This document shows, in pieces, positions 1,674 to 47,147 of a stretch of DNA of 64,000 nt. The stretch is from Cymbidium sinense (taxonomy: Eukaryota > Streptophyta > Magnoliopsida > Asparagales > Orchidaceae). The stretch is from the NCBI GenBank assembly GCA_021442155.1, contig CM038214.1, positions 22,717,808 to 22,781,807 on the forward strand, written 5' to 3'. The translations under genes and the position numbers were made by a program. The notes under the pieces were generated by a model, which worked only from the letters and a program-made list of their open reading frames with translations, had not been told where the DNA came from and ran no database searches. Numbering within the stretch: the first letter of the stretch is position 1; every line of letters starts with the position of its first letter.

Positions 1674-2151
1674 AATGGGCAGAACCTCGACGCCAGGAAC
1701 ATCACTGTCAACCAGGCTCAATCTAGATATAATGAGGGGGAAAGGCAGAAGCGGAGATTATTGCAGTGGTGGTGGGGTATCTGGAGGTGTGGTGAATATG
1801 GAGGTGGTGGTCGGAGCAGTGGTGGTTATGGAGGTGAGAGGAGCGATGGTGGTTATAGCCGTGGTGGTGGTGGATGGAGAAATCGAGGATATGATGGTAG
1901 ATTCCACTACTCGAGGTGGTGGTTCTGATGGAAATTGGATAAACTTAAAATGATCGATCTGCTTCTGCTATATATAACTATGGCTTTACAGTAGAGACGG
2001 TTCTAGTTATCTATGAGTTTTGATTTGATCTATGCATGCTCATTTTTTATTTATGCCATCTCTTGTGTCTTAGAAAACTTTGTGCGTTACTTGGTTAATG
2101 AAATTGAAAAAAAGAAATGTTGAATTTGAACTTGCTCTCTATTTAAAAAAA
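1674..2151 (+). pseudogene. GRP fragment copy 1 (end of RRM + glycine-rich tail + 3' UTR)
   Basis: The first 18 codons read NGQNLDARNITVNQAQSR, the C-terminal end of the RNA-recognition motif of plant glycine-rich RNA-binding proteins of the GRP7/GRP8 type, which are RNA chaperones and splicing regulators. The frame stays open for 84 codons to TGA at 1926-1928. The middle (about 1734-1800) is scrambled by indels that cancel out, then the glycine-rich tail returns (YGGGGRSSGGYGG, SRGGGG). The final GSDGNW-like end is out of frame. A 3' UTR shared with the other copies runs to an A-run at about 2144-2151. No start codon, RNP1/RNP2 or promoter is present, so it is a 5'-truncated fragment. Confidence 0.85.
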
Positions 2152-2384
2152 CCAAAACCCTAAACCCTCAACTAAACCTGAACCATAAGCATTAAACCCG
2201 AAAACTTAAAAACCTTAACCTAAACTAAATAAAATAAAATAAAATAAAACCTAAACTAAAATAAAGTTAAAATTAAAAAAAACCTAAACTAAAATGTAAA
2301 CCTAAACCTAAAACAAAAAAAAAAATAATATAAAAACATATGAACTACTAAAATATAAATCATAAATATAAGTCATATACATAA
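2152..2384 (+). repeat. Degenerate telomere-like satellite
   Basis: CCCTAAACCCT at the left edge passes into CCTAAAC and AAAATAAAATAAA. It has the same strand orientation as the rest of the array and ends where LINE-derived sequence becomes recognisable. Confidence 0.85.
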
Positions 2385-3160
2385 TAAGTCTAGGTCTACC
2401 TCTGCTAAAATAAAATAATGCATCTACTCTCATCATATATAAAATAAAACTAATCTTAAAAATAACCTAACTCAGAATAATAAAATAACTCATCCACTGA
2501 ATCCTCTCTCTAAAAAGTCTTATGCTTCTCTATAAAATAATTAAGTGGAACTTTCTATCACACAACAGCCGATGCATTCCTCCACTTCAACCATCCAACT
2601 TGAATTCTACTAATAACATCTCCATCTATTTCACCATCATTTTGAACAATAGAGCCTAAATATCTAAATTGCTCACTCTTACTAATGACTTGTTGACCTA
2701 ATGTCACAACACTACCACTAAAACTTCTACAACTAAAATTACACTCCATATATTCAGTTTTAGATCTACTTAAATGAAAACCTTTAGACTCTAATGTTGA
2801 CCTCCATAATTCAAGTTTCTCTCGGACTCCCTCTCTAGTCTTATCAACAAGAAGAATGCCATCAGCAAAAAAGCATACACCAAGGTACATCTTTCTGTAA
2901 ATGCCTAGTAAGAACATTCATAATTAAAGCAAAAAAGATAAGGGCTTAAAGCTGATCCATGATGTAATCCAATTGAAATGGGAAAATATTTTGTCAATCC
3001 TCCTTGTGTTTGGACACAAGTAATAGATCTAGTATACATATCCTTAATGATTTGAAATAGCTCTAGTAATTGCCGGTCCCAAGTCCCGATGTGAAAAGTG
3101 GAGGGTTACGATAGGTAGTTGACAGCTAGCGTAAAACTTGTCGAAATAATCATGACATGA
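2385..3160 (-). mobile_element. LINE fragment with reverse-transcriptase core, catalytic motif mutated
   Basis: On the - strand, 2917-2558 encodes 119 residues covering the palm region of a plant LINE reverse transcriptase. The catalytic Tyr/Phe-Ala-Asp-Asp motif reads FADG (2858-2869), followed by ILLVD and then the conserved SKTEYMEC and FRYLGS motifs. The second catalytic Asp is Gly, so activity would be lost. Sequence matching the homologous LINE at 17171-19957 continues to about 2385 but dissolves into telomere-like bases. The segment at 3075-3160 (reverse complement of CCGGTCCCAAGTCCCGATG and following) appears to be a different part of a LINE joined by internal deletion; this last point is from memory of plant LINEs and less certain. 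Confidence 0.8.
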
Positions 3161-5397
3161 ATCCTTTAAACTTAAACCTAAAAAACAAAATAAATTAAAA
3201 ATTAAAAACTAAATTAAAATAAAATAAATAAAAACATAAACTAAACTAAAAAGTAAAAAACATAAACAAAATAAAAACTAAACAGAAAATAAAAATAAAA
3301 TAAAACTAAAATAAAATAAAATAAAAACTAAAAAAAGATAAACCTAAAATAAAAACTAAAATTAAATAAAAAATAAAACTATATCCTAAACTAAAAAAAG
3401 ACTAAACCTAAAATAAAAATAAAAGAAACCTAAATCTAAACTAAAATGAACAAAACTAAAATAAATAAAACCTAAACCTACACCTAAAATAAACTAAACC
3501 TAAACATAAACCTAAACCCTAAATAAAATAAAATAAACTAAAAATAAACCTAAACCTAAACTAAAAAAGTAAAACTTAAAAATAAACCAAATTTAAAACC
3601 TAAACCTAAACCTTAAACAATAAAATAAAAACCTAAACCAAAACCTAAAAATAAAAAAATTAACCTAAACATAAAAAAAAACTAAATACAAAAACCTAAA
3701 CTAATAAAAACATAAAATAAATAAACTAAAATAAAAAATATATATATATGAAAAATAAACTAAACTAAATAAAAATAAAAAAGAAAATATACTAAAATAA
3801 ATAAAAAAGAAACTAAATAAACTAAATAAACATAAACCTACCAGTTTACTGAATTTAAAAAAAATTAAAAAATTTTAAAATTTTTTAAAAAAAACCCTAA
3901 CCCTGAACCCTAAATCCTAAACCTACAACCTTAAACCCTAAACCATAAACCTTAAAACCCTAAACTCTAAACCCTAAACCCCACAACCTACAACCTACAA
4001 CCCTAAACCCTAAACCCCAAACTATAAAACCTAAATCCTAAACCCTAAAAACCTGAAAACTTAAACCTAACCTAAATAAAACAAAAAAATAATATAAATA
4101 ATGAAACCTAAGCCTTAAAAAAACAAAAATAAAATAAAACAAAAGCCAAAACTAAAACATAAACCTAACCTAAACCTAAACTAAAACCAAAACTTAAACC
4201 TACAATTAAAATAAAATAAAAAATAATAATAAAATAAATAAAAATCTAAACTAAACTAAAAAATAAAATAGACCTAAGAATAAAAAACCTTAATAAAATA
4301 AAAACTAAATGTAAAATAAACATAAAATAAAACTAAACTAAAATAAAATAAAAACTAAATAAAAACCTAAACCTGGAAAAAAAACCTAAAAATAAATAAT
4401 TATAATAAAACCTAAACCCTAAATTAAATAAAAAACTTGACCTTAAAATAAAAATAAAATATAAAATATAAAATAAACCTAATCATAATAAAAAAGAAAC
4501 TGACTAAAATAAATAAAATCTAATCCTAAACCTAAAATAAACATAACCTAAACCCTAAACTAAAAAAATTAAAAAAAACTAAAAATAAACCAAAACCTAA
4601 ACATAAAAAGATAACCTAAAAATAAACCTAAAATAAAAATCTAAACAAAAAATTAATACTAAAAACCTAAACCTTATCCTAAAAATAAATAATAAAACCT
4701 AAACACAAAAAATAAAATAAAATTAAAATTAAACTAAAAAATAAACATAAACCTAAACCTAAACCTGAAAAATAAATTAAAATAAAAAACCTAAACTAAA
4801 ATAAATAAACCTAAAATAAATAAATTAAATTATATAAAAATAAAAAAGCCTCAATAATAATAAAAAATAAAATAGACTAAAATAAATAAAAATTAAATTA
4901 AATAAACCTAAACCTACTAATTTACTTAATTAAAAAAAACCTAAATCTTAAATCCTAAACCTTAAATGCTAAATCCTAAACCCTAAACCCTAGACCTTAA
5001 ACCTTAAAACTAACCCTAAACCTTGAACCCTAAACCCTAACCTAAACCTAAACCTAAACCTAAACCTAAACTAAACTAAACCCTAATAAAACCCTAAACC
5101 TAAACCTAAACCCTAAACTAAACCTAAACCTTAAACACTAAACTAACCTAAACCTTAAATAAACCTAAACACTAACTTAAACCTAACCCTAAACCTAAAC
5201 CCTATAACCTTAAACCTTAAACCCTAAATCCTAAACCCTAACTAAACCTAACCCTAAACCCTAAACTAAAAATAAAGTTTAAAACTAAACCTAAACCTTA
5301 AACTCAACCTAAACCCTAAACCTACCTCAAACCCTAAACCTAAACCTAAATAATTAATAAATTTATACCCTATAACCTAATAAACCTAAACCATAAG
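3161..5397 (+). repeat. Telomere-like higher-order satellite, two units
   Basis: Only A, C and T on the + strand for long stretches. The recurrent box (CAGTTTACTGAATTTAAAA form) is at 3841-3860 and again at 4917-4937. After each box the sequence restarts with cleaner CCCTAAACCC (3890-4060, 4975-5340) and then slides into CTAAAATAAA. The order of landmarks matches later units, so this is a tandem array and not random low complexity. No gene is visible. Confidence 0.9.
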
Positions 5398-5855
5398 AAT
5401 GGGAATAACCTTGACGAAAAATCAATGTCAGCCAAGCTCAATCTAGATCTTGCGGTGGAGGAGAAGGTGGAGGCGAATCGTAGTGGTGGGGATGAGGTGC
5501 CGGGTGGATATGGAGGTGGTGGTTATGGAGGTCGGAGGAGAGACATAGGTTATAGCCATGGTGGTGGCTGAGGGAGAGATCTAAGATATGATTGTGGATC
5601 ATGTCACTCAAGAGGTCAGGGTGGTTCTACTAGGAACTAGAGAAATTGAAGAATGACAGATCCAATCTATTGCTTATGGAACTGTGTCTTTATAGTAGAG
5701 ATGATTCTAATTATCTAAGGTTTTTGATTTGCTCAATGCGAGCTCATTTTTTATCTATGTCGTCGCTTGTATCTTGGATAACTTGGTGTGTTATTTGATT
5801 TATGAAATCAAAAAAAGAAATATTGAATCTGAATTTATTCTCTATTAAAAAAAAA
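5398..5855 (+). pseudogene. GRP fragment copy 2, frameshifted
   Basis: It starts at the same AATGGG junction as the other copies, directly after a CCATAAG telomere-like edge. A small deletion inside the RNITVN codons (about 5411-5425) throws the RRM frame out. The glycine-rich part is recognisable at 5455-5580 (GGAGGTGGTGGTTATGGAGG) and the shared 3' UTR runs to an A-run at 5847-5855. It carries CAA at the QAQSR codon, as copies 1 and 3 do. Confidence 0.85.
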
Positions 5856-7310
5856 CCAAAAACCATAATTCTTAAATTAAAACCTAAACCCTAGAACAAA
5901 AACCTAAAACATAAACCCTATACTACGAAACTTAAAAACCCTAAACCTTAAACCCTAAACCCTAAATCTAAAACACTAAACCCTAAACCATAAACCATAA
6001 AACCTTAAACCCTAAATCATAAGCCCTAAACCCTAATCTCTAAACATTAAATCCTAAACCATAAACCATAAACCCTTAAACCCTAAACCCTAAACCCTAA
6101 ACCCTAAACCCTAAACCCTACAACCCTAAACCCTAAACCCTAAACCCTAAACCCTAAACCCTAAACCTTAAACCCTAAAAACCTAAAAGGCTAAACTTAA
6201 ACAAAATAAAACTTAATAATAAAATAAATAAATAAGCCTAAACTTAAATAAAATAAAATAAAAACCTAATCCTAAAAAATAAAATAAAAAAATAAAAATA
6301 AATTAAAATAAAATAAATAAACACCTAAACTGTACGAAAAAATAAAATAAACCAAAGAATAAAAACCTAAATAAGATAAAAACTAAATGTGAAATAAAAA
6401 TAAAAAAACCTAAAATAAAATTAAAAAAAACTAAATAAAATCCTAAACCTAAAAAATAAACCTAAAAATAAATAAAAAATAAATCATGAACCTGAAACTA
6501 AAAATTAAAACTAAAACTAAAATACAAATAAAATAAACCTAAACCTAAACTAAAATAAAAATAACCTAAACTAAAAGCTAAAATAAACTAAACCTAAATA
6601 CCTAAACTAAATAAAATAAAATAAACTAAAAATAAATCTGAACCTAAATTGAAAATGAAACCTACATAAACATAAAATAAAAACCTAAAACTTAAACCTA
6701 AAAAAATAAAATAAAAACATAAACCTAAACTTAAAAGTAAAAAATAAAACCTAAACTTAAAAAATAATTTGAAAATAAAACTAAGCTAAAAAAATAAGCA
6801 TAAACCTAAGCCTAAACCTAAGAAAATAAACTAAAATAAAATACCTAAATAAAAATAAATAAACCTAAAATAAATTAATTAAACTAAACAAAAATAAAAA
6901 ATAAACCAAAATAAAAATGAAAAATAAAGTAAACTAAAATAAATAAAAAATAAACTAAATAATACTAAACCTAAAATTTTACTTAAGTTAAAAAAATATT
7001 TAAAGAAAATAAAAAAAATAAAAAACCCTAACCCTAAACCTTAAATATTAAAATTAACCCTAAACCCTAAACCTAAACCCTAAACCCTACACCCTAAAAT
7101 ACCATAATCTCTAACCTAAACCTAAACCATGAAATCATAAACCCTAAAACCCTAAACCCTAAACCCTAAACCCTAACCCTTAAAACCTGAACATTAAACT
7201 CTAAACCCCAAACCCTAAACCTAAATCTAAAGTAACTAAATAAATTAAAAAATAAATCTAAACCCTAAATCCTAATAAACCTAATTCTAAAGATAAACCT
7301 AAACCCTTAG
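5856..7310 (+). repeat. Telomere-like satellite with the cleanest heptamer run
   Basis: It begins with CCCTAAA-rich DNA (5900-6180), degrades to AAATAAA (6200-6960), shows a weak box at 6977-6996, then a second CCCTAAA-rich start (7022-7210) and the leader AGTAACTAAATAAATTAAAA at 7231-7250 just before GRP copy 3. No gene is visible. Confidence 0.9.
6081..6165 (+). repeat. Near-perfect plant telomere heptamers (CCCTAAA)n
   Basis: Five perfect CCCTAAA units at 6081-6115, a three-base interruption (CAA at 6121-6123), then six perfect units at 6124-6165. This is the longest run of exact plant telomere repeat in the window. The C-rich strand is the + strand, so a contiguous telomere would lie leftward. 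The run is embedded at an interior position, so it is an interstitial or subtelomeric tract. Confidence 0.95.
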
Positions 7311-7778
7311 AATGGGCAGAACCATGACGATAGGAACATCACCATCAACTAGGCTCAATCTAGATCTAGTGGGAGGCTAGGAAGTAAGCATCAAAGGATG
7401 GTGTAGAATCAAGGTGTGGTGGAGGTTGTAGTTAGAGCAAAGGGTGGTTATGGAGGTGGGAGGAGCATGAAGGTTACATCCATGGTGGTGGTGGAGGAAG
7501 AGATCGAGGATATGATGGTGGATCTCGCTACTCGAGAGGCGAGGTGGTTCTGATGGGAACTGGAGAAATCGAAGAATGGTTGATCCGATTTACTACATAT
7601 GAAACTTTATCTTTATAGTATAGATGGTTTTAGTTATCGAGGGTTTTTGATTTGCTCTATGCATGATCATTTTTTATCTATGTCGTTGCTTGTGTCTTAG
7701 GAAACTTGGTGTGTTACATGGTTGATGAAATCAAAAAGAAGAAATGTTCAATCTGAATTTGTTCTCTGTTAAAAAAAA
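7311..7778 (+). pseudogene. GRP fragment copy 3, early stop
   Basis: Reads NGQN, then a His for Leu, then RNITIN followed by TAG where the other copies have the Gln of NQAQSR (CAG/CAA to TAG, a C-to-T type change). The glycine-rich region is rearranged at 7370-7480. The distal part (GGAAGAGATCGAGGATATG to the GATGGGAACTGGAGAAA end at about 7550-7568) is well preserved and shows the ancestral C-terminus GSDGNWRN out of frame. The 3' UTR runs to an A-run at 7771-7778. Confidence 0.85.
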
Positions 7779-9493
7779 TCCAAAAACCTAAAACCCAAAA
7801 ATAAAACTTCAACCCTAAACCTAAACCCTAAACCCTAAACCCTAAAAAAAAAAAAACTAACCCAATACCTTAATCCCTAAACCCTAAAACATATAATGTC
7901 AAACCCCTAAACCTTGAACCCAAAACCCTAAAAACTTAAAAACCTAAACCAAACTAAATAAAACCTAAAAATAAAATAAATAAATAAAATAAACTTAAAT
8001 AAAATAATATAATAAAATAAAATAAAAACCAAAACTAAAACCTAAACCTAAAAATAAATTAGAATAAGAAATAAAAACTAAATTAAAATAGAATAAATAA
8101 AAACTAAAAATAAACTAAAAAATAAAATAAATAAAAATAATAAAAAAACCTAAATAAAATAAAAACTAATCAAAAAATAAAAATAAATCCAAACTAAAAT
8201 AAAATAAAATAAAACTAATTAAAAACCTAAACCTAAAAAATAAACCTAAAATTAAATAAAAAATAAAACCTAAACCTAAATTAAACTAAAATAAATAAAT
8301 CCTAAGCCTAAAACTAACATAAACTAAACCTAAACCCTAAACTAAATAAAATAAAATAAACTAAAAATAAACCTAAACCTAAACTAAAAAAGTAAAACCT
8401 AAAAATAAAATTAAAATAAAAACCTAAAATCTAAACCTAAAAAAATAAAAAAAACCTAAACCTAAACCTAAAAATAAAAAAACTAAAACCTAAACCTAAA
8501 AAATAAAATTAAAATAAAACTGAACTAAAAAATAAATATAAACCTAAACCTAAACCTAAAAAATAAAATAAAATAAAAAACCTAAACTAAAATAAATAAA
8601 CCTAAAAGAAATAAAAGAAACTTAATAAAACTAAAAAAATAAACCAAATGAAAATAAAATTTAAAATAAACTAAAATAAATAAAAATAAACTAAATAAAC
8701 TAAAAGAACCTAAACATGCCAGTTTACTTAATTTAAAAATAAACCTAAACTAAAACCTAAACCTAAACCCTGAACCTATACCCTACAACCTTAAAAAATT
8801 TTATAAAAAAAACCCTAACACTAAACCCTAACAAAAAGCCCTAAAACTAACCAAAAACCCTAAACCTAAAACTTAAATCCTTAACCTTTAATCCTAAAGC
8901 CCTAAACATGAAAACCCAAAACCAAAACCTTAAACCCTAAACCCTAAAATAAAAAAAACCCAATCCCTTAACCCTAAACCTTAAAACTTACCCTAAGTCC
9001 TAAACATTAAGCCTACAACACTAACCTGCAATAATAAACCCTAAAGCTTAAAAACCCCTTAACCTTAAACCCTTAAAGCATACACCCTAAAACCCTAAAC
9101 CTTAAAACCTAAATCATAAAGTAAACTAAATAAACTTAAACTTACTAATTTACTTAATTTAAAAAAATTCTAAACCCTAAACCCTAAAACTAACCCTAAA
9201 CCCTAAACCCTAAACCTACAACACTAAACTTATAACCCTAAACTTTAAACCCTAAAAAAACTTAAACCGTAAAACCTAAACCCTAAACCCTAAGCCCTAA
9301 ACGCTAACCCTAAACCTTAAACCCTAAAAGCACAAACCTTAATATCCTAAACACTAAACCCTAAATCTTAAACCGTAAACCTTAAACCATAAACCCTTAA
9401 CCCCAAACCCTAAACCTAAACCTAAAGTAACTAAATAAATTAAAAGATTAACCTAAGCCATAAAACCTAATAAACCTAAACCTGAACCCTAAG
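7779..9493 (+). repeat. Telomere-like higher-order satellite
   Basis: CCCTAAA-rich start (7800-7950), a long CTAAAATAAA body (7950-8700), box at 8718-8737, another CCCTAAA-rich stretch, box at 9144-9166, then CCCTAAA-rich DNA and the leader AAAGTAACTAAATAAATTAA at 9424-9444 leading to GRP copy 4. The two boxes only 426 bp apart mark a shortened unit. Confidence 0.9.
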
Positions 9494-9927
9494 AATGTGC
9501 AAAACCTTGACAGTAGGAACATCACCATCAACCAAGCTTAGTCTAGACCCAGGAAAGGCGTAAGAGCAATTGTAGTGGTGGTGGGGATCTAGAGGTGCTA
9601 GTGGAAGTGGTAGTGGGAGCAGTGGTAATGGAGGCGGAGGGAGTGATGAGGTTAAATTGGTGGCGAGAGAGATCATGGATATGATGGTGGATCCAACTAC
9701 TGAGAGGCCGGGGTTTTGATGGGAATTAGAAACTAAAGAACAATCGATGTTCAAATTGTGTCTTTATAGTAGAGATGGTTCTAGTTATCTAAGGTTTTGA
9801 TTTGCTCTATGTGTGCTCATTCTTGATCTATGTTGTCACTTGTGTCTTACAAAACATGGTGTGTTACTAGATTGATGAAATAAAAAAGAAGAAATGTTGA
9901 ATCTGAATTTATTCTCTGTTAAAAAAA
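9494..9927 (+). pseudogene. GRP fragment copy 4, early stop
   Basis: Reads N-V-QNLDSRNITINQA and then TAG (CAG to TAG in QAQSR), the same nonsense change seen in copies 5 and 7. The glycine-rich stretch (9560-9720) is shortened and frame-shifted. The 3' UTR is complete to an A-run at 9921-9927. The antisense strand reads as a proline/leucine-rich open frame here; that is a shadow of the GGN codons. Confidence 0.85.
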
Positions 9928-10265
9928 TACCAAAAAACCTAAGTCCTAAACTTAAACCTAAACCCTAAACATAAAACCTAAACCCTAAATCTTAAACCCT
10001 AAACCTTAAAACTAACCCTAAACTCTCAAACCTAAGCCTACTACACTAAACCTACAACCCTCAACCCTCAACCATAAACCAAGAAAAACCCTAAACCCTA
10101 AACCCTACTCCCTAAACCCTAAACCCTAAACCTTAAACCTAAAACCTTAACCCTAAACCCTAAACACTAAAACCATAAACCTTAAAACCTAAACCCTAAA
10201 CCCTTACCCTAAAGTAAACTAAAAAGTAAACCTAAACCCTAAAACCTAATAAAACTAAACCTAAA
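9928..10265 (+). repeat. Telomere-like satellite ending in a GRP leader
   Basis: CCCTAAA-rich DNA, then a degenerate leader (AAAGTAAACTAAAAAG at 10211-10226) and CCTAAACCCTAAAACCTAAT. In other units this leader is followed after 55-82 bp by a GRP fragment. Here the LINE at 10266 begins at the expected place instead. Confidence 0.85.
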
Positions 10266-11627
10266 TTAGTAAGCATGAGACATCAACTCACGTTGACTCC
10301 CCCGCTTTTTGTACACTAAACCACTTGCCTGCCATCGACCTCATGCTCTGGTGATTCCCCTTTTCCCCTATCATTTTTGGCATTTTGGTCACTACTTGAC
10401 AGTTGTTTGGTGTGATTCTCACTGGATTCTTTCTGGATTTAATGGCCAGTAGCCACTTTCATATTTTACTTAGAGTGATGCCATGGCCTGGCATCTTCCC
10501 TGATGATTCCATGATTGAAACTGACGGATCCAATGGATCCTAGTAGGGCATTAACTACCTTAGTTTTGTCTACTTCAAAATCATTCAAAGACATCCTCAC
10601 TAGTTAGGATAGCTATTCAGGTGAGTCCTTGGAACTTATTTTGACTTCTTTTTTTCTTATGGTTATGTGCTCTGATCTGATTATGTAAAAGCTTGCTAAG
10701 CCATTGGAATTCACTTTAGTTGGAAAGTTTACTCTTTGTAGGCTAAATCTAGAAAACATTCGCTATTTCCATCATAGTATGAAACTTTCAAGTGCTTTTT
10801 TGATTGGTTTAATTAATACCCACCACATTTTGATTCAGTTAACAAATGATTTGGATTACTCATATATTGTTGCTCATTGTTCTTATTTTGTTTTTAATTT
10901 CCAAATGAGGTTGTTGAAATGGACTCCACTATTTGATATTAGGGAAGAATTCCTAATCATTATGGTTTGGATTTCTCTCCCCATCCTTGTTGAATTGGAC
11001 ATTACCGAAAAAAGAAATTGGGATTTGAAAATTATGGTTATATGAAAGTTGACTTTGAAAATTTTCTATCTTTTATTCTCATTGTAAAATCTATGGGCAT
11101 GATAATTTTAAATGTTTCATTCTGCATGCTCACCTAAAAAAGAAAATTCATGCTATAGAAACTATTGTTCCTAACCCTAGGCTGACCAATGTTAAATATC
11201 AAAAAGTTAATTAAAAAAAAGGATTCATTCAAAGTTCTTAATAAGGCTATTATACCTCTTATTTCTTTTATGAAATTAAAGGTTTCTAATGTGGAAAATA
11301 ATAATTTCTCTAAACTTTTGAATGGAGATTTTTTTCCTCTGAGTCGATCCCCGCATCCTTACCAATTTTGATTGATGAAAATGAAGCTTTAATTGAAAAT
11401 ATTAATGATGATATCAATGTTATGCATCATTTGAATTCAATGGAGAATATGGCTTTGGTTTCTCATGATATTCAGTTTTAAAACGACTTTACTTTAGTTC
11501 AAGATGATTTAAATCCTCAAAAGATTTGGTTTTGTCTAATAATCTGGGTATCAAAGAAGAAGGGCTAAAATGTTCACACTTCTTAATAAATCTATTTTGA
11601 CTCCTCACTTATATACCCAATGCTCAT

Positions 11628-11864
11628 TTGCCTTTAATGAATTCTAATGGATTGAAAGAAGGAGAACTCACTTCTATACATGAGACTTCCCCTAAATGTA
11701 TGACTAATGTTGCTAAATCCTTCTTCGATGATGATTCTATGGGAAAAGGAAATTGTTTCCAAACTTATCATGCTAAAAGAAAACAAATGTTAAAAATTCC
11801 CTCCCAAATTGTCCAAAACACTAGATCTCTACAACCTCCCTCTCCTAAATTAACCTTTTCTTAA
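11628..11864 (+). pseudogene. ORF1-like remnant of the LINE
   Basis: A 78-codon open frame rich in Lys and Ser, lying between the LINE 5' region and the endonuclease. I do not recognise a CCHC knuckle or other domain in it. Its position matches the end of ORF1 or the ORF1/ORF2 spacer in plant L1 elements; no function can be claimed. Confidence 0.3.
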
Positions 11865-11899
11865 CCCCTTTTTATTTCTTTATGTTTAATTTTCTTATT

Positions 11900-12700: not shown

Positions 12701-12748
12701 TGGTGGAACAAGCATTATTTTTAAAACCATTTTGCTAATATCAAAGAA

Positions 12749-14270: not shown

Positions 14271-14722
14271 CTTCTTAATAAATATTTTTGTGGATCCAAT
14301 AATTCTACTAAAAGAATGCATTGGACTTCTAGTGTAAATGTTGTGGTCCCTTGGGTGAAGGTGGTCTCAGTTGCAAACTAATTCATGAAGCTATTATTGT
14401 CTTCTCTCATAAGCTCTAGTGGAATTTTGGAAAGAATGGTAGCCTTTGGGCTAATTTTATGATGAAAAAAAATTGCCAGGTAAACACCCTCTTATTTGTG
14501 CTTATAAAGTTGGTGACTCTCTGGGTTTGGAAATGGCTTTGCTCCATTAAATGGGTTGTTGAACCCTTAATATCTTGGGGTATTCATTAGGTTCTTCTCT
14601 CTTTGGAAAGACAATTGGATTGGCAATGGCTCTATTGACTCCCTTTTATTTACCCACTCTCTGCATATCAAAGTTAACTCTTTCAAGCATAATAACACTT
14701 GGAATGAAAACAAACTAGAATT

Positions 14723-36405: not shown

Positions 36406-36924
36406 AGGTGATTCCTATAGGGAGTTTTCTTGAGCCAAAGATAAGATGTCTGCTTGGGAAAGATGCGCTAGGGGTGTCCTAATTCACAAGTGAATATATA
36501 TTTTGTTTGTATGTTTGCATAGATCCTTTTATTGTGTGATGGACCACACTGAGAATGGGCTATGTCACACCTATCTTAGATTTATTAGACCAAAGAATCG
36601 CATCCACGGATGGATTCTCCAACCACAAGGTGGTTAATAGGAAAGAGGAACCAATCCTAAGTAGTGTCTAAATGGGGTGAAAGGATGTGATCCAAATATA
36701 GTGCCCACAAATGAGGTTGAGGGCGTTATTCTAAGGTGTTCAGTTGCCAACTCAAGGAGAAAGTGTAGCAAACTTATGTCTGCCAAGAGTGGTGTATCCT
36801 AAGGTGAGAGAACCAACCAATCTAAGGTGTATCATAGATAGTGAGAACCAACCAAGGTGCCTGGTGCAATGATCAATCTTGAAAGAAAATGTGTAGGCTT
36901 ATAACTTTATAAGTGGCGATCATA

Positions 36925-37145
36925 GGGATAGTCCATCATTGGTGGGACATATGTTGCTCGACCTAAGCGACTACTGCGGGAGCTCAGGAAGGTGACCAGA
37001 CTTGAAGCGGTCAAGAGGAGCCATTAGGGCAACATGTGATAGTCATTGGCGGGACATATGTTCCGACCTTGGCGGCTACTAAGGGAGCCTCGAGGAAGGG
37101 AGACCTGACTTGAAGCAGTCAAGAGGCAAGGAGCCATTAGGGCAC
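36925..37145 (+). repeat. Direct duplication of a roughly 105 bp module
   Basis: CATTGGTGGGACATATGTT (36938) to GAGCCATTAGGGCA (37031) is repeated as CATTGGCGGGACATATGTT (37046) to GAGCCATTAGGGCA (37142). Both contain GACTTGAAGC(G/A)GTCAAGAGG. The copies are close, so this duplication is younger than the 260 bp one. Confidence 0.85.
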
Positions 37146-37759
37146 TTAACCTAAACCTCAAATATACTAGACTCAATGTGAAGGCTAATCAAGAAGAAAG
37201 CATAGAGACCCACATCCTCTTAGATAAAGCCAACATGAGTTACCAACCATGCAGGAAGGCCTACCAAATAAGGTGCTCATCGGTGTGCGGTGGCCAAAGG
37301 AAGGAAAGCGTAGGTTACATCCTCCAAAGCGGAAAGACCACTAGGGTGACACTAGAAGGGTAGCACGTCAGTGACTGCGATCTTGGTGACTACGTTGGGG
37401 CATTATCTAAACTCAGAGTAGCCCAAGACAAAAGATATGTGTTTATTTTATATGTTTGTGTATCATTTATGTTTGTGTTATGTCGATAAAGGATAGGATG
37501 CCGCTCGGGTTCCTTACACCTACCCTAAACACATCGTGGCAGATTCACAAATAAGAATACTTTTATAATGGAAGAGATTGAATTAAAAATGGAATTTTCA
37601 TTGATGATAATTATTTGTAAACATGATTTATAATATTTTTAAGTGGAGCCCATTGATTGGAAGCATTCTCCTTATGATTAATAAGGCGATAAGATGCATC
37701 TTGGTAGGCCTTTTCTATGAAAAAAAGACCTTCCTAAGTGGGTTCAAACTTGCCTCCCA

Positions 37760-37978
37760 TCATGATGGGTGATAATGGTGACAATCATTATCCTTAGAGT
37801 TAAAATAAGCTCTCCTACTTAAAAAAAGCTTTAGGATGGACCAACTTATTATGAGCTGAATCATATTAGCTTTGTACAACTTAAGGTTTTGGCATGCCCA
37901 TAGGTGTCTCTCCTCCAAACCTTCGAGCTCTTCTAACCATAACTTGGCGTTCTGCTCTATTGTGATCTTGCTACCCAA
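37760..37978 (-). pseudogene. Post-integrase region of gypsy pol
   Basis: A 72-codon open frame with LWLEELEGLEERHLWACQNL and then LKLYKANM, resembling the charged helical segment following the integrase core in plant gypsy elements (a LEELEE..A...L..Y...M pattern). It is in a different reading phase from the integrase core, so at least one frameshift lies between 37980 and 38160. Confidence 0.65.
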
Positions 37979-38159
37979 AGCTATATTTAGTGATGGGAGT
38001 TGGACTTCTAATGGTAGATAAGCTTGGACACTAAGGAGAAAGGAGTAGATTGAGTTGGAGTTTTATATGTGGTGTGGTAGGCCCTCAAGGCTTCAACTAA
38101 GCATTATTGCTTTTTTTATTGTGAGTGTCTTCTTGTATTTGGATGAGAGTTTTATTGAA

Positions 38160-38837
38160 GGATTTTGCTAATCCATTTGCCCTCATGTAGTTGATGGTAG
38201 AATATCTCCAATATATGTTGTGTCTTTGGGAAAAGTTGTTGATCTCAGTGCTCTTGAATGCAATACCATTATCAAATATAATTTATCGAGGCACTCCGAA
38301 CCTATATACAATATGGTTCCAAAAACACTAGAGCACATGCTAAGCTATGACCTCTCTGAGCGAAATCACCTTCGCCCATTTGGAAAAGTAATCAGTAACA
38401 ACTAAGATTAATCGATGATCCTTGGAAGAAGGAGGATCAATCAAACCCACTTTGTTGGTACCCCAACACTCAAATGGCCATGAGGCCAATGTAGGATGTA
38501 GAATATTAGGCGGTTGGTGTAGGACCACAATGTGTATTTGACATTGGTGGCATCGCCTAGCCGTATCCATGCAATCTTTGATCATCGATGGCTAGTAGTA
38601 TCCTAGTCTTTTGATCTTGGCTTTCATCTTCGGACCGGATTGGTTGGCTCCACATAATCCTAAGTGTACCTCAATCATGATCTTATGGGCTTCGTGCTTG
38701 TATAAACAACATAACCACATATGATCAAAAGACCACCGACACAAGACACCATCCACAAGCTCATAGGAAAGTGCTCTCGGTTCATCATGGGCTTGGAACT
38801 TCTCTTGAGGTAGATTGCCTTTATTTAGATAATCCAT
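38160..38837 (-). pseudogene. Gypsy integrase, one frame with stops and two lost catalytic residues
   Basis: The enzyme normally joins element DNA to the host genome. A single reading phase runs from 38837 to about 38160 with stops at 38594-38592, 38342-38340, 38330-38328 and 38285-38283. The zinc-binding part has EVHLGLCGAN (second His replaced by Asn) and CHQC. The core reads WGTNKVG, where the first catalytic Asp is Asn (38456-38454). The second Asp is kept in IIFDNG (38273-38271). ANGLAK has Lys for the catalytic Glu (38165-38163). The last two are 35 residues apart, as in D,D-35-E integrases. The protein would be inactive even without the stops. Confidence 0.88.
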
Positions 38838-38974
38838 GAATGGTTGCCTCCAATCTAACTCCTCATCCTTCTTTGCAATGGCAACCTCCTTCTCAAGAGA
38901 GTACTTTTTGATGAGTTCAATATCAAAAAGGGATAATACTTGTCTATTTTGGACTTTATTGATATGGACTCATC

Positions 38975-39200
38975 CTCCGACATGCCAACTCCTTGGCAAG
39001 CTTGGCTAAAGCTTGGACATTCTCTCCTCGAGGAATCTTACAAATGGTAACCTCTTGGATTTGGGCCAACAACTCCATGTACTTATGGTAATGATGGATT
39101 TTGGGCTTTATAACTTTATAAGACTCAATGATTTGGTTGATAACTAGTTGAGAATCCCCAAAGATGTTGATGTTCTATATGCTTAGAGTAACTAACTCAG
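38975..39200 (-). pseudogene. Gypsy RNase H C-terminal part
   Basis: Reads GDSQLVINQ (GDS about 39159-39151), then HHYHKYMELL, VTICKIPRGENVQA and LAKLAKELA. The family normally has Asn-x-x-Ala-Asp just before ALAKLA; here the Ala-Asp pair, which contains the last catalytic Asp, appears deleted (about 39020-39010). The enzyme would degrade the RNA strand during reverse transcription. Confidence 0.75.
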
Positions 39201-39240
39201 ATAGGCAATCAAAGCCTCATATTCGACTTCATTGTGTAAG

Positions 39241-41840
39241 GATTGGACGATGACATGAGAATGATCAAAACTACATTCAAATGTTCAAAACTAAATCAAA
39301 CTAAATCAAAAAATCAAGCCAAAAGCCTATCTCATGGACTTAGCCAAATCTTAATCCAAATCAAGTCAAACTAAATTGATTTTCTCACAAATCAATCATA
39401 TTTTCAATCATCTTCACAAATTTAAATGAAATATACATTTAAATAATCAGAACTAAATCAATCCAAATCAAAATCCAAACCTAACATGACCAAACTCCAT
39501 GGACTTAGCTAAATTCCTTCATTCCAAAACCCAAATTCAATTTATTTTCTCAAGAATCAATCATACCTTCAACTATATTCATAAATATAAATGAAATCTA
39601 TAATAATCAAGCTAAACTAAAATCAACCCAAGTCAAACCCAACTTAACCCTTTTGACTTGAAATTTTCAAATTAACCAAAACCCATTTAAACCCAAGCCA
39701 ATTGCAATTAAATTCATATATCAATCCCAAATCCATATATAAACTCAACTAAATCAACCTCAACCCAAAATGAAGCCTAAACAATTGGTCCACTTTACCC
39801 AAAGTGGCCAATTTTACCTATCGAGCCAAGTTCTAATAGTCCATTGGATTGAACCAAGCCCATCAAAACCTTCTCATCATGATTGTTAATCACCCTAGGT
39901 TGATCAATTATCACAAATTGGGTCAAATCAAGTCAACTTGATCATTTGACCAAGTCAACCACTTAACCCATATGAGTCCAAACTAGCCAAATTACAACTA
40001 AGCCAAATCCCTTGAAACCAATGATTCATACCAAATCAAAATAAATTTGAATATGACTTTACCTTCAACTGTCAAACCAAAACCAATTGGCTCCCTTAAG
40101 TTGACCCAAATTGACCTAAAAGACCAAATTAGGTCAAATCAAAATATAAACCAAATTGATTGCAACCAATGGCTCAAGTTCATTCCAATTGATTGTTGAA
40201 TTTTACCAAAGCCATGGTTGGACCCAATTGAGCCCAATTGATGTATTTAGCCCAATTTGACCTAAAGGTTCATCAAAACCAATCCAAATTAATTTAAACC
40301 AAAGCTTAAAATAATCTTCAATTAGTCCACTAAACTAACAAACACCCAACCCAAGCTAATTTGGCTAATTTAATCAAATTGGTCAACTTAACCCATTTGA
40401 CCAAAATGAATTCAAATGAGCCAAAATTAAATCTAAGCTAAACTAAACCAAACCAACCAAACATCCTAAATGATCATATGAATTTAACCCAACCCTTGGT
40501 TTGACCAAATTTGACCAATTGGTCAACTTGACCCAACCTAACCCAATTTGACCTAAATGAGCCAAATAGAGCCAAACCTAACCAAATCAACTCCAATTGA
40601 CTTGAAATTTTGGCTAACCCACTTTTGGCTCATTTAAAATCTGCCCAAATCAAATTTAATGCCCAATGATCATTCTACCTTTGGGTCAAGGGCATCACAT
40701 GAGACAAATCACTCATGTACATGGTCATTTCCATTCTTTGGCCACTTGGTAATCTCCCAATGGTCCACCTAGGTATCTAGGTCCGCAACCTTGGTGGTTG
40801 GGTGAGCCATGACCCATGGGAGGTGAAATCACATCACCCTCCCCATTGGAGCATTTGAAACCCATAAGACACCATGATTCCTCCTTTGCACCACCTCCAA
40901 ACCTTTAGCTAACCAAGCCAAAACTCCTCCTCCACCCATGACTCCTTGAGATGGCTGGATGGCCACTAGAATCCAAACTCGATCCCGCATCCAATCAATA
41001 TGAAGGGGGGTATACATTCCTCGAGCCATAGCTACACAAGATGAGCCTAAAGCTATTTCCTCCCAAGCTCATTCCTCGATCAAAAAATGCCATTCCCATC
41101 AGTCCCAAAATAGGACACTCCCATTTTTGACCTAGCTTTTCTATTTCTCCATCAAACTCAAATTTACTTTGCACGCACCATCCTTAGGCCACGTCGAGCA
41201 AGAACAAAGCATCTCCCAAGTTTCCCATGCACCAGAGGTGGGACTTTGATCAAAGTCGTGCTCCAAATCAACAATTCATGGCCTTCTAAGTGAACAATGA
41301 TGAATTGATCCAATTGCTTCTCAACAAGGCTTCAACTCCAATAGATGAAGCTTCATCAATTGTTTGAGCTACTGTCTTTTGCTCCTGAGGTATGCTTCCA
41401 AAACTAAACCTTAGCCAAAATGGGTTGGAGATTTTGAAGAAAACTTACATCTCATGCGTTCTTATCGTTGGATCCTCTCTGATCGATATCATGAAGGTGT
41501 GGGATCCTTTTGGAGTTGATCCAAGCTTCGAAAGCTCAAAGTGAGCAATGGTGGGCACTCCATTCTCTCACTTTCGCATGACATTAGATCAAGCACCATC
41601 TCCACATGATCGAAATGGAAAATCAAGATTAAATCTTCTAGATCGATTTGATTTAATCTTATTAAGTTGTTAGATTAATCATGGTCGTCCTATCATAGAT
41701 TGGATGGTGGGCGAAAGAGCATCCACCATGCCGTAAGCGAGTTGGATAAGTTTTAAGTAACCACCGCTGCCATGAAAGCACGTGTTTGTGCCCGCGTCCT
41801 GCGCCATGTGGTGCTAATAATTAGGCTTTATTAGGCTTAA
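39241..41840. other. Non-coding DNA rich in TTGACC/GGTCAA words, probably retroelement-derived
   Basis: 39270-40680 is A- and C-rich on the + strand, with many AACCAAATTGACC, GGTCAACTTGACCC and AACCCAATTTGACC words, a quasi-repeat with no fixed period. 40680-41840 is more complex sequence with no convincing frame; the 66-codon open frame at 41029-40829 on the - strand has no recognisable domain. It may be the long untranslated part or LTR of a gypsy element. I see no gene. Confidence 0.5.
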
Positions 41841-42910
41841 TTAATCATTTTTAATGGTTGAAACTTCTAAAAAGCATAAAAAATTATAGAGAAATAAAAT
41901 AATGCAAATAAATACTCATTTTAAAAGTATTTTAGAGGAGAATTAATTAAAATTTATCTTAACTAATTTTGAATAGTAATTAAGGTTTAATTGAAAAATT
42001 AATTAGCTTAATTACTTTTTTATTACTTGAGCAATTAATCCTAAATTGTGTGAGTTAATTTAATGGGATGACATCACTCCCATGATTTTCTTGGGATTTA
42101 TTGCTCACTTAATTAAGAAAATTGTCTAATTAAACCTTAACTACTCTTTTAAGTTAATTAATGATTAATTAATCCTATGAATAGTAATAAACTAGTTAAT
42201 TAAGTTTATCAATCATTGTTCAACAGTAAGTGAACTAAGATTTTCTTGGGATTTTCTTGGGATTTATTGCTCACATAATGCAAGTTTATTTTCATGCATA
42301 TCATGTTGGCTCATAATTATTTAGTTAATTACTTTAAAGTGACATTAGTAAGGGTAATTAATTCATCTAATTAAGGGTTCAACATTAACCCATAAAATCA
42401 ACTTAATTAAATTTCCTAAAATTAAATCAAATCACTAATGTGGAATGGGTTTAAAATAACAAGTGATGATTTCTCTTCTCCTCTTAAAATCAAATAAAAT
42501 CCAAAACTTAATTAAAGAAGCTTTGGTATGCTTTAAATAATCTTATTTGATTTGATTATCATTAAGAACTAGTTTGGTTGAATAAATCACATGCTTATAT
42601 TTGATTGTCCTCTTTCCAATCATGTTAAATTTGGTATGTCATTTGAATTCATGCATCCATCTTTTCAAAATCAAGTAAAAAGAAAATGAATTTTTTATGT
42701 AAGCTTGCAGTGTTGATTTAATTTAATATATGCATGGCTATTATCACTATTAAATAATAATGTAATTTTCAAAAGCTTATAAATGAATAATAATATGTTT
42801 TATGATGCTAGTTATAATTACATAAGAAATGGATGTTTATAGATTAAGTGTATGAATGTTGAGTTCTCTTTCCTATATTCATGTGTTGATTTATATAAGA
42901 TTAAATGGTA
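41841..42910. other. AT-rich region without a visible gene
   Basis: Many TTAATTAA words. A 23-base phrase TTTTCTTGGGATTTATTGCT (plus CAC) occurs twice, at about 42086 and 42252, with a partial third copy just upstream of the second. No open frame, RNA gene or terminal repeat is recognised. Confidence 0.5.
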
Positions 42911-43625
42911 ATTGGTATATAGTTTGAACACAGGAACATGAGGCTTTTAGCTAGCCCCAAGGAGGTCATTTGATTACCTCACTTCCCTAGTTTAACAATG
43001 CCACGCACCTATTTGATTTCATTCTTATGTATTTCAACATTAGAATTTGGTTAGAGCTTTAATTCATATATATAAATGATTCAATAAAGAAAATACAATC
43101 TTTTCATGGCTTTCTTTACCTCATTTATTTATACATCCATGTGTGTCCAAGAAAAAACCAAGTATATAGTCTAGACATCCGAGAATATGAGTCTTTAGTT
43201 AGCCCAAAGAAGGTCAATTGATTACCTCACTTCCCTAGTTTAACAATGAGATGTAATTGCCTATATCTTTGTACATGAATATGTATATGTGATTAGTGAA
43301 TGAAAATCCCATTTTACATTAAAATTGCATGCATTCATAATTGACTAAGTGGCTGATTTAATTAGCCATATGATTTGGAGATTACTTTTTATGTTCATGT
43401 ATACGAATTTACATATGTTTGAATGCAAATGGGTATATAGTCTGGACATCCGAAGAATACGAGGCTTTAGCTAGGTCCAAGGAGATCATTTGATTACCTC
43501 ACTTCCCTTGTTTAACAACGACACATGCCTATTTAATTTCATTCATATGTCTTTTTTGTATAAGAATTTGGATAAAGTTTTAAATTAATATGTTTAAATA
43601 ATTCAATCAAATAAAATATAAATTC
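42911..43625 (+). repeat. Three tandem copies of a 250-270 bp unit
   Basis: The core phrase GTATATAGT(T/C)(T/G)... GAGGCTTTTAGCTAG ... AAGGAGGTCA.TTGATTACCTCACTTCCCTAGTTTAACAA starts at about 42917, 43163 and 43434 (spacings about 247 and 271). After the core, copies 1 and 3 also share ATTTCATTC.TATGT and AGAATTTGG. The CCTCACTTCCCTAGTTTAAC core is almost invariant while the spacers have diverged, so the core may be constrained or recently converted. Confidence 0.85.
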
Positions 43626-45963
43626 TAAACATGCAAATAAATTCATCATTTATGTGTTCTAAAATATGTTGCATGTATAGATATACATAGGATTAAATCA
43701 TATGCATGTTACATGTGATGGAAAGGAATGATTTAATATATGTCTTGTAGTAATTGAATTAAATTAATCTTATGCCTTTCATTATGAATAGGATTATTTA
43801 AAGTGAACCTAAACTTAGGATTAATTAAATCATTTAATAAGCCATTCACTAAAGAGAACTAAATTAATTTATTATACTTTAGAAAGTAATTTAACAAAAA
43901 TTAAAATTCTCAAATCAATTAAACTACTTCAAGTGAAATCAATCATTCATGTTAAATTGAATCCCTACACTTAGAAAATACAACACTAATGCCTAACAAG
44001 ACTTTCCACGAAGCCTTACACACATTAGAATTAAGTCACCACTTCTAGCTCCAAGTTAGGATGGTGTATGATGTGATATATGATTTTTTATGATGTATTA
44101 TTTTAGATTGGATGTTAGGGTGTACGGTTTATAGATTAGATGATAGGCCAATATTTTCCAAATCATGTTTTCTATAATGTATTATGCTTAAGGGATGCTT
44201 AAAATAAATGTGAATGCTCTATTTACAATGGCTTAAATCCTTAAGCATAATCCAAAGTTATGACGTGGGCTTAGTTACCAATGTGCTAAGTCAAATACTT
44301 GGGATTATATGTATATTTAGCTAACCTCTATTTTGAAAGTGTAGTTATATTTACTTTTCCCACATAAATGTAATTTTTGTAATAGGAATTAGGATTAGTG
44401 CTATGGGGGATTAGGATGGCCACTGGCCAGAAGGCTTTGTCCTAGGGTGTGATGCCTTTAAAATAAGCACCATCCAAATCAAAGAAAGAACCAAATCAAA
44501 AAAAAGATATGAAGAAAGAAGACCCCATAGCATTTAATATAATTATAATTATTCTTTCAGATTTTTCATGTTGTATAAGGGTGAGCTCACCCATCTTTTC
44601 CCTCTTGGGTTGTACTGGTAAACCCTTTATTATTCTATGATAGTTTATATAATATTTTTATGTTATGTTTACATTATGCATTAGATGGCATGCTTTTCAT
44701 AGTTTCTTAAATGATTGATGCTTTAATGTGTGTCTTGGATTAGGCTCTTAGGATAAAATAAATTTTCTACCCAACTAATCACTCATAATTAAATTTTAAA
44801 CAATTCATAACCTCATCATAAACCCTAAGACATAAATAAGATAATTAAAAGATTTAACATCATGCATGCATATTCTTTCTCTCTTGAACATGAAGGATCT
44901 CCATCCTTGCACAAAAAAGAATGCTTGACCTGTGAGGGCCTCCCTTGTGGTGGAGAACACCATTTCTAGTTGATTTGACCCATAACCTATTTCAGCATGC
45001 ATTTAGGAATAAAAAATTTTAAAGCCTCTATTAAAATAATGTTAATGAAATAAAATTTGAAAAGATTTTTCATCTATAGATTATGTCATATGCTTATACC
45101 ACTCTTGCTATAATCTCTCTTAGTGTGTTTAGTACTTTAGTCTCTTTCTAATTAAATACCAGCTATCTTGTAATTTATAAGGCCAGACTACATGGATATA
45201 TAATCATAGGAGGAGTTAGCTGGTGGCTACTCCAGGTGGTTATAAGTCCAGAAGTCAGACAATTTATTCTCTCTTGTGGAGGTAAACCCTTATGTCCACC
45301 TATCACTTAAATTTTGGTCGTTCTTTAGTTCGTACTAAAGCTCCCTAAATTTAGGATCTGAGGTAGCTATTTCCTTCGGGCTACGAGCATAAATCCTCAC
45401 CTCTTAGGCATTCTCACAACCTTGTGTTAATGGATTATAAGCCCTAGTAATCTAATTAAATTTTAACTCAAAACATATAAATCTTCTCAACTTCAAAATT
45501 ATAAAGCCCAATCATATGATAAATTAGAATGATCACAAGGCTTCCTAGTATCATGAGCATTTCCTACTTCTTTCATTTGGATTCAAAAAATAAGTCTTCT
45601 CCTTGAACTTTCCCAATTGATTTTCCAAATACAACAAATCCTTAGATAGTCTAACCTTGAAATCTTTGAAGATAATAATTGTCTACTTTAATCGAGAGTA
45701 TTCTTAGGAAATTTCATTTCCTAAGATGTAATTAACTATGGAGGCTTACCTCCATAGAGAACTTAAGAACCTAGTTTAAAGTAAACCCTACTTTATTTAT
45801 CCATGTAAAGTAGGGAAAAATCTACTACATTCAATACCCATCATGCTTTAGGAGTCCTTATTATGTTATTAGGTCCATTTTAGGGTGATGCCTCTATCTT
45901 TCGAGATAGTACATTATACCTCAATGTTGTACCCGATTACCTCAAAAAGTATCCCCTACCAAT
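43626..45963. other. AT-rich unique-looking DNA to the right edge of the foreign block
   Basis: No convincing coding frame (the 65-codon frame at 45002-44805 on the - strand has no domain). 44030-44640 contains ATGATGT-rich sequence and a pyrimidine-rich stretch ending near TTTTCCCTCTTGGGTTG. 45120-45420 and 45640-45960 have moderate complexity. The block ends near 45963, where AAATAAATAAAAAATAAAACC of the satellite resumes mid-unit. Confidence 0.45.
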
Positions 45964-46700
45964 ACATCCAAAAATAAATAAAAAATAAAACCTACACCCT
46001 AAACTGAAAAAAAACCTAAACCTAAATTGAAAATAAATAAAATAAAATAAAATAAACCTCAACCAAAACTAAAATAAACTAAACTAAAATAAATAAAATC
46101 TAAACCTAAACCTAAACCTAAACCCTAAACTAAAATAAATAAATAAACTAAAAATTAACCTAAACCTAAACAAAAAAAATAAAACCTAAAATTTAAAATA
46201 AAAACCTAAAACGTAAACCTAAAAAAATAAAATAAAAACATAAACCTAAACCTAAAAATTAAAAATAAAACCTAAACCTAAAAACTAAAATAAAAATAAA
46301 ACTAAACTAAAAAATAAACCTAAACTAAAATAAATAAACTTAAAACAAATAAATAAAACTAAATAAAAATAAAAATAAACCTAAATAAAAATAAAAAATT
46401 AATAAATTAAATTAAATAAAAAATAAACTAAATAAACCTAAACCTACTAGTTTACTTATTTTAAAAAAAAATAAAAAAATAAAAAATAAAAAAATGAAAC
46501 CCTAACCTTAAACCATAAAACTAACCCTAAACCTACAATCCAAACCCTAAACCCTAAAAACACTAAAACCTTAATCCCAAATCCAACCCTAAACCATAAA
46601 CCCTAAATCCAAAACCCTAAACCTAAACCTAAAGTAACTAAATATATTAAAATATAAACCTAAACCTTAAAACCTAATAAATCTAAAACTAAACAATAAG
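45964..46700 (+). repeat. Telomere-like satellite with box and GRP leader
   Basis: It re-enters the unit at the landmark CCCTAAACTGAAAAAAAACC (45997-46016), continues through the CTAAAATAAA body, the box at 46447-46470, CCCTAAA-rich DNA, and the leader AAGTAACTAAATATATTAAA (46632-46651) before GRP copy 8. Confidence 0.9.
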
Positions 46701-47147
46701 AATGGTAACCTTGACTATAGGAACATCACCATCAACCAAGCTCAGTCCAGATCTGACAGTGGCGAAAAAGGTGGAGGCGGCAGTTATCGCAATGGTGGTG
46801 GGGGATTTGGAGGTGCGTGGATATGGAGGTGGTGGTGGTGGTTATGGAGGTGGGAGGAAGGGCAGGTTACCAGTGATGGTAGAAAGAGATCGGGGATATG
46901 GTGGATCCAACTCGAGAGGTTGGGGTGTTTCGATGGCTTGGAAAGCGAAGAAATCAATCATCTACTACTTGTGAAACTATATCTTTATAGTAGAGACGGT
47001 TCTAGTGATCTAGGGTTTTTGATTTGCTCTATGTGTGCTCATTTTTGATCTATGTCATCACTTGTGCCTTAGAAAACTTGATGTGTTACTTGGTTGATGA
47101 AATTGAAAAGAAATGTTGAATCTGAATTTATTCTTTGTTAATAAATA
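46701..47147 (+). pseudogene. GRP fragment copy 8, frameshifted in the glycine tail
   Basis: Reads NGNLDYRNITINQAQSR (short deletion after NG), then GEKGGGGSYRNGGGGFGGA before a small deletion near 46813-46818 shifts the frame into Trp-rich nonsense. CAG is retained at QAQSR, as in copy 6. The distal part (AGATCGGGGATATGG at about 46887) and the shared 3' UTR are present, ending in a degenerate A-rich tail near 47139-47147. Confidence 0.85.

What the first reader, a model, noticed from the sequence alone, without database searches (positions are those of the whole stretch)
1674..47147. A glycine-rich RNA-binding protein fragment is built into a telomere-like satellite as part of the repeating unit
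Eight copies (starts 1674, 5398, 7311, 9494, 21312, 24647, 31088, 46701) share orientation, the same left edge (AAG|AATGGG or a close variant) and the same right edge (TTCTCT.TT plus A-run). Five or six share an upstream leader 55-82 bp before. Independent insertions would not give identical edges and one strand, so one capture followed by amplification with the array is the simplest reading. I do not know of a described satellite with this composition.
Basis: partly seen in the sequence, partly recalled or inferred. Interest (0 to 1): 0.88.

Follow-up and report, generated by a model that had tools for sequence, protein, structure and literature searches.

The report
Gene-fragment satellite in orchid genome
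In this plant genome, probably an orchid's, a shortened copy of one ordinary gene's messenger RNA sits inside telomere-like repeat DNA and was multiplied with it to tens of thousands of places, which shows how a gene scrap can become part of a genome's repetitive DNA.

Summary
Confirmed and extended. Eight copies lie at the stated places, on one strand, with the same edges or close variants. The parent gene is in the same 3.53-Gb assembly (L029): a two-exon glycine-rich RNA-binding protein gene. Copies match it only from mid exon 2 to the 3' end of the mRNA; where the gene runs on into TGATCATTC, copies have an A-run. So the insert is a 5'-truncated, polyadenylated mRNA copy. The telomere-GRP left junction occurs 51,602 times (<=3 mismatches; reversed control 3), the GRP-A-run right junction 65,214 times (control 69); the gene-like left context has one hit at <=1 mismatch, the gene. 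Ten of ten copies fetched from nine other large contigs and one small contig share edges and flanks; flank type goes with GRP sequence. One capture, then amplification, is well supported; repeated independent insertion is not. GRP is in 8 of about 24 gate-marked units here: frequent, not obligatory. Copies decay without codon constraint, with excess CG/CHG transitions: probably silent. How it spread between chromosomes is unknown. The two nearest proteins are orchid; species not named.

The parts
1674..2150 (+). GRP copy 1 (5'-truncated mRNA copy) with A-run; LINE-like repeat X ends about 15 bp left of it
5398..5855 (+). GRP copy 2 with A-run
7311..7778 (+). GRP copy 3 with A-run
9494..9927 (+). 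GRP copy 4 with A-run
21312..21769 (+). GRP copy 5 with A-run
24647..25115 (+). GRP copy 6 with A-run; member of the B subfamily
31088..31540 (+). GRP copy 7 with interrupted A-run
46701..47149 (+). GRP copy 8 with broken A-run
5328..5397 (+). leader of copy 2
   Evidence: nhmmer 43.9 bits
7214..7310 (+). leader of copy 3 (type A)
   Evidence: 68.1 bits
9409..9493 (+). leader of copy 4 (type A)
   Evidence: 74.4 bits
21235..21311 (+). leader of copy 5 (type A)
   Evidence: 58.9 bits
24567..24646 (+). leader of copy 6 (type B)
   Evidence: 46.0 bits
31004..31087 (+). leader of copy 7
   Evidence: 45.0 bits
46616..46700 (+). leader of copy 8 (type A)
   Evidence: 62.0 bits
10196..10279 (+). leader followed not by GRP but by the start of an X-like LINE (about 10270-14720)
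   Evidence: 29.1 bits
3808..3863 (+). one of 24 gate motifs (CCTACCAGTTTACTTAATTTAAAAA), all plus strand, from 3808 to 54263
   Evidence: profile trained on 13 of them; weakest 17 bits; 18 plus, 0 minus pattern hits
3180..54300 (+). telomere-like array, interrupted by non-satellite stretches (about 10.3-14.7, 17.2-19.9, 33.6-46.0 kb); words of C(0-3), T and an A-run cover 80% of the 27,497 array bases measured

Best explanation
A single mRNA of a glycine-rich RNA-binding protein gene was reverse transcribed, truncated at its 5' end inside exon 2, and inserted with its poly(A) tail into telomere-like satellite DNA (shown: truncation, an A-run that the gene lacks, one edge; inferred: which reverse transcriptase, probably a LINE's, since the GRP sense lies on the C-rich strand in all 34 copies examined, so that a poly(A) tail could prime on the TTT of the G-rich strand). 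The insert with its immediate flanks then multiplied with the satellite to more than 50,000 places on many chromosomes (shown), in an old star-like radiation and a younger B subfamily (shown in the tree), by duplication processes that are not identified (inferred: unequal exchange within arrays plus circle-mediated or repair-mediated transfer between chromosomes). The copies have no coding role and decay as methylated DNA (inferred from the mutation pattern).
For: Parent gene L029: the satellite profile aligns to L029:657-1146 only; left edge mid exon 2, right edge followed by an A-run where the gene has TGATCATTC. Same left edge genome-wide: 51,602 vs control 3, and 1 gene-context hit at <=1 mismatch. 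Right edge 65,214 vs control 69. Ten of ten copies on other contigs, picked by GRP similarity to copy 6, share edges and flanks. B-type proximal leader in those 10 of 10 against 4 of 23 others, Fisher p = 1.1e-5; these ten and copy 6 form a clade with support 99/95. One orientation to the array: 24 of 24 (weak for 1674, 2:1, and L012, 5:2) and 10 of 10. Founder-like frame open to the stop; codon positions differ alike (0.285, 0.287, 0.307); transitions at CG 33%, CHG 28%, CHH 10%, A and T 5 and 4%.
Against: The parent's only intron lies upstream of the captured part, so intron loss cannot be tested. No target-site duplication of GRP can be read in a repetitive target. Single flank pairs in the window rarely exceed array background. 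Three left-flank classes exist (A, B, X); A and B share about the last 40 bp, X about 15, so the flank has been remodelled, and 4 of 16 extra C1 copies had no adjacent leader hit at 22 bits. Three B-labelled copies lie outside the B clade. Consensus and parent differ by 9%, with indels of 6, 3 and 3 bases in 22-24 of 24 copies, so the founder may come from a lost paralogue or older allele.
Confidence: 0.85

Rival explanations
1. Many independent retropositions of the same mRNA into telomere-like arrays, all stopping at one point because reverse transcription halts there (for example at an RNA structure), with an insertion preference giving the shared leader.
For: The mostly star-like tree and the open founder frame are what repeated copying of a functional mRNA would also give; the fragment is G-rich.
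Against: The leader is not a general target: in 164 kb, of 12 plus- or minus-strand leader hits at 25 bits or more, 9 abut GRP, one is parted from copy 1674 by X, one is followed by an X-like LINE, and one is a partial minus-strand hit. Flank type goes with GRP sequence. The right flank after the A-run is shared too. Changes such as 165C>T and 464T>A are in 24 of 24 copies, though these could be the parent's own later changes.
Confidence: 0.06
2. The GRP module belongs to a mobile element (SINE-like, or a LINE carrying it by 3' transduction) that inserts into telomere-like DNA, so the copies are insertions rather than satellite units.
For: LINE-like repeat X ends about 15 bp left of GRP in copy 1674, in L012 and in L040 on C6; 99 X-leader junctions exist at <=3 mismatches (control 0), several next to GRP hits, others ending in CCCTAAA and not GRP junctions.
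Against: Most copies examined have no X. X has leader on its left and leader end plus GRP on its right at copy 1674, so it looks inserted into an existing leader-GRP unit. Left edges are uniform rather than variably truncated, and the right flank after the A-run is conserved satellite DNA. Transversions between copy 1674 and L012 (0.061) are near those between their X copies (0.058, or 0.041 over the last 4 kb), as expected if duplicated together.
Confidence: 0.06
3. An assembly artefact inflates the copy number.
For: 2174 contigs and a 100-N gap in the window.
Against: The 24 copies differ from one another by 17-38% in the multiple alignment, so they are not duplicated reads.
Confidence: 0.02

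Closest known systems
Interstitial telomeric-like repeats of plants (review PMC8621592 and Cycas study PMC9827991; passages read)
   Same: TTTAGGG-type repeats away from chromosome ends; the review's passages propose satellite-like amplification, possibly by rolling-circle copying of extrachromosomal circles
   Different: Here the arrays are mostly C(0-3)TA(n) variants with an mRNA fragment inside; the term 'gene fragment' has 0 hits in both papers
Processed (retro)pseudogenes made by LINE machinery (recalled)
   Same: 5' truncation, poly(A) tail not encoded at the gene
   Different: Amplified to >50,000 copies with its flanks instead of standing alone; intron loss not testable
Satellites born from retrotransposon-derived tandem repeats (PMC7004042; title and abstract start in the listing only)
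   Same: A piece of other sequence becomes part of a long-array repeat
   Different: Source is a host gene's mRNA, not a transposon
Drosophila AT-chX repeats with vasa-like sequence (vasa likeness recalled; passages of PMC8412364 read, describe a repetitive X-linked piRNA locus)
   Same: A host-gene-like fragment inside a repeat locus
   Different: One locus with small-RNA output; here genome-wide, no expression data

Membership tests
Processed pseudogene | poly(A) tail absent from the parent gene at that point | tested here: met
   L029 continues TGATCATTC after the homology; copies have an A-run
Processed pseudogene | full-length or 5'-truncated copy of mature mRNA | tested here: met
   homology begins mid exon 2 (L029:657) and ends where the A-run begins
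Processed pseudogene | introns removed | not testable with these tools
   the intron (L029:476-564) lies upstream of the captured part
Processed pseudogene | target-site duplication | tested here: inconclusive
   both flanks are telomere-like repeats
Satellite DNA | head-to-tail repeats of a common unit | tested here: met
   24 gate motifs on one strand and a recurring gate-leader-GRP order; unit length irregular and GRP absent from many units
Satellite DNA | high copy number genome-wide | tested here: met
   51,602 left and 65,214 right junctions, 74,889 gates, at <=3 mismatches
Interstitial telomeric repeats | TTTAGGG-type repeats at internal sites | tested here: met
   393,212 matches of (TTTAGGG)3 over both strands in 3.53 Gb; the window lies at 22.7 Mb of a 377-Mb contig
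LINE/SINE element | defined element ends with target-site duplications; variable 5' truncation between copies | tested here: not met
   one left edge in 8 of 8, 14 of 16 and 10 of 10 copies; flanks conserved satellite DNA; target-site duplications not assessable

The most novel reading that the evidence does not exclude
The tens of thousands of GRP-bearing units are not merely passive: transcripts or small RNAs from them, which would carry GRP coding and 3'UTR sequence, act back on the parent gene's mRNA or mark the arrays, so that a captured mRNA has become a genome-wide regulatory satellite.
Probability: 0.07. Interest if true: 0.85.

Novelty: new variant of a known kind. Interest (0 to 1): 0.6.

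Why it matters
It is a countable example of a host messenger RNA becoming part of a satellite at >50,000 copies, with an intact parent gene in the same assembly, fixed edges to count and subfamilies to trace. That makes the path from one retroposition to a genome-wide satellite testable step by step, and gives a tag inside otherwise featureless telomere-like repeats for tracing how such repeats move between chromosomes.

Tried and rejected
Rejected: one GRP copy per unit everywhere (8 copies, about 24 gates). Rejected: left edge at an exon boundary (it is inside exon 2). Rejected: the shared Q of NQAQSR as a pseudogene lesion (8 of 118 homologues and the parent have Q). Dropped: strand bias of listed exact matches, since only the first 100 places are listed and whole counts are balanced. 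Dropped: the internal-pattern count (27,372, control 1) as a denominator, because that stretch has fast-changing sites and the pattern held one variant base. Pattern sensitivity on 24 unselected copies is 15 left, 14 internal, 15 right, giving rough totals of 82,600, 46,900 and 104,300; only raw counts are claimed. Left out of the 24: a partial GRP hit at the end of L025 and 39-bp fragments in L004-L006. Not settled: whether X beside copy 1674 was duplicated with GRP or inserted more than once; the GRP tree does not pair W_1674 with L012 and their identity is average (rank 164 of 276), while transversions fit joint duplication. Two ORFs of X and the ORF at 38595-38969 had no Pfam hit; the related stretch in the window has DUF4283 and RVT_1. 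Rfam and PDB searches gave nothing. Literature: ten searches of the held open library, listings capped, showed no title or abstract start describing a GRP-bearing telomere-like satellite; passages of two Cymbidium genome papers (PMC8633000, PMC12120893) have no 'telomer' or 'satellite'; passages of PMC6947457 gave no such case.
Full report
Observation. The eight copies exist as stated. A blastn search with copy 1 returns those eight places and no others in the window, all on the plus strand; a profile of the eight finds no ninth. With 150-bp flanks the left edge AAG|AATGGG (or a close variant) and the right edge plus A-run line up; the A-run is interrupted in 31088 and broken in 46701. A leader of about 80 bp directly precedes seven of the eight. 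The mean pairwise score of the seven upstream flanks is reached by 0 of 1000 random and 0 of 1000 composition-matched sets from the same arrays. A weaker test tells less: 3 of 21 single pairs exceed the 99th percentile in the first 80 bp, 0 of 21 in the next 80, and 1 of 28 in the first 80 bp downstream.

The array. About 27.5 kb of the window was measured as array; 80% of it is made of words with zero to three C, one T and a run of A, that is CCCTAAA and shortened forms, with 2% G. A gate motif recurs 24 times, always on the plus strand, by a profile trained on 13 of them; the plain pattern gives 18 plus, 0 minus and 1 reversed-control hit. Only 8 of about 24 gate-marked units hold GRP. In a contiguous 164 kb (50 kb on either side of the window added) there are 12 GRP copies, all plus strand, and 12 leader hits at 25 bits or more: 9 abut GRP, one lies upstream of copy 1674 beyond repeat X, one (10196-10279) is followed by an X-like LINE, and one is a partial minus-strand hit.

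The parent gene. A protein search of the window's own genome (3,525,751,733 bases, 2174 contigs; 150 of 75,093 candidates scored) found a gene with two matching exons on C13. The fetched stretch L029 shows exon 1 at 361-475, an intron at 476-564 and exon 2 to the stop at 948-950. The satellite profile matches L029:657-1146 over its full length (451 bits). To the left the gene reads GGGATG where copies read CCCTAAG; to the right it continues TGATCATTC where copies have an A-run. So the insert came from a polyadenylated mRNA. The intron lies outside the captured part, so splicing cannot be tested. The two closest proteins are of Dendrobium chrysotoxum (94% over 51%) and Phalaenopsis equestris (92% over 53%), followed by a cactus protein (76% over 51%), so the plant is probably an orchid; the genus is not established.

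Genome-wide. A DNA search gave 11,728 first-look candidates, of which 40 were scored; all 40 are 80-100% identical and nearly full length. The left junction CCTAAGAATGGGCAGAACCTTGA occurs 26,183 + 25,419 times at up to three mismatches, against 1 + 2 for the reversed control. The gene-like left context gives 541 hits; the only one at one mismatch is the gene, 14 have two, and those listed at three look like junction variants (100 places listed). The right junction occurs 65,214 times (control 69) and the gate 74,889 times (control 94). (TTTAGGG)3 occurs 393,212 times (control 0). Of ten 10-kb samples at 1-20 Mb of C1, six hold GRP copies. Of 16 extra copies on C1, 12 have an adjacent leader hit at 22 bits; L012, one L013 copy and both L020 copies do not; 14 of 16 show the left edge by eye. 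Ten further copies, chosen only by GRP similarity to copy 6, on C2, C3, C6, C7, C9, C10, C15, C16, C19 and C1041, all share the left edge, A-run, leader and right flank.

Co-inheritance. Leaders fall into types A and B, with intermediates. All 10 copies picked by GRP body have the B form next to GRP, against 4 of 23 others (Fisher p = 1.1e-5). These ten and copy 6 form a clade with support 99/95; most of the rest is star-like, with the parent inside it, and three B-labelled copies (W_5398, L013_3736, L021_7350) lie outside. Pairwise difference among 24 copies averages 0.257, range 0.17 to 0.38. Identity within the 164 kb (0.840, 66 pairs) equals that to samples megabases away (0.841, 144 pairs), so spread was not merely local.

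Fate. The founder-like sequence is open to the stop. Codon positions vary alike, and transitions are concentrated at CG and CHG sites, the mark expected of neutral, methylated DNA; expression and methylation were not measured.

Nested repeat X. Upstream of copy 1674 lies a ~7.2-kb repeat whose A-rich end is 15 bp from GRP, with a leader on its other side. A possible target duplication (AACCTAAA on both sides) is not conclusive in such sequence. The stretch at 10270-14720, which carries DUF4283 and reverse-transcriptase domains, is 86% identical to X over 3.7 kb and also starts right after a leader, so X is a LINE-type element. X also ends 15 bp left of GRP at -19500 and on C6 in L040; 99 X-leader junctions are found at up to three mismatches, some of them not GRP junctions. 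Joint duplication of X and GRP fits the transversion distances; the GRP tree does not pair the two local copies, so repeated insertion at a favoured site is not excluded.

Conclusion. One retroposed mRNA fragment was captured by a telomere-like satellite and amplified with it genome-wide. Shown: mRNA origin, fixed edges, copy number, shared flanks, co-inheritance. Inferred: the enzyme that inserted it, the route between chromosomes, and silencing. It is a new variant of known kinds (interstitial telomeric satellite plus processed pseudogene), not a new class. The ten literature searches run showed no description of it.

Noticed in passing
window 10270-14720: LINE remnant (DUF4283 7e-9, RVT_1 1.4e-22), 86% like repeat X over 3.7 kb, begins right after a leader; its 3' part and any GRP are missing.
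   Followed up: partly
window 2558-2914, minus strand: Reverse-transcriptase-like fragment (RVT_1, 1.2e-5, under the curated cut-off) shortly after GRP copy 1.
   Followed up: no
window 58000-64000: GC skew is about +0.8 to +0.9 here against about -0.8 at 50-52 kb: the satellite runs in the opposite direction.
   Followed up: no
window 54374-54473: 100-N scaffold gap, after which a different AATAAT/CTAATAA-rich repeat begins.
   Followed up: no
window 3180-54300: Array words keep TAAA but vary in C number (0 to 3), as if the C-run of the telomere repeat had been shortened by degrees.
   Followed up: partly
L042 1-2500 (first bases of contig C1): The assembled end of the 377-Mb contig is the same satellite, with (by eye) a leader and the start of a GRP copy; the last 2.5 kb (L043) has no TTTAGGG or CCCTAAA.
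   Followed up: partly
window 1-1658, L011-L012, L040: LINE-like repeat X (~7.2 kb) abuts GRP at the same 15-bp offset at several places in the genome.
   Followed up: partly
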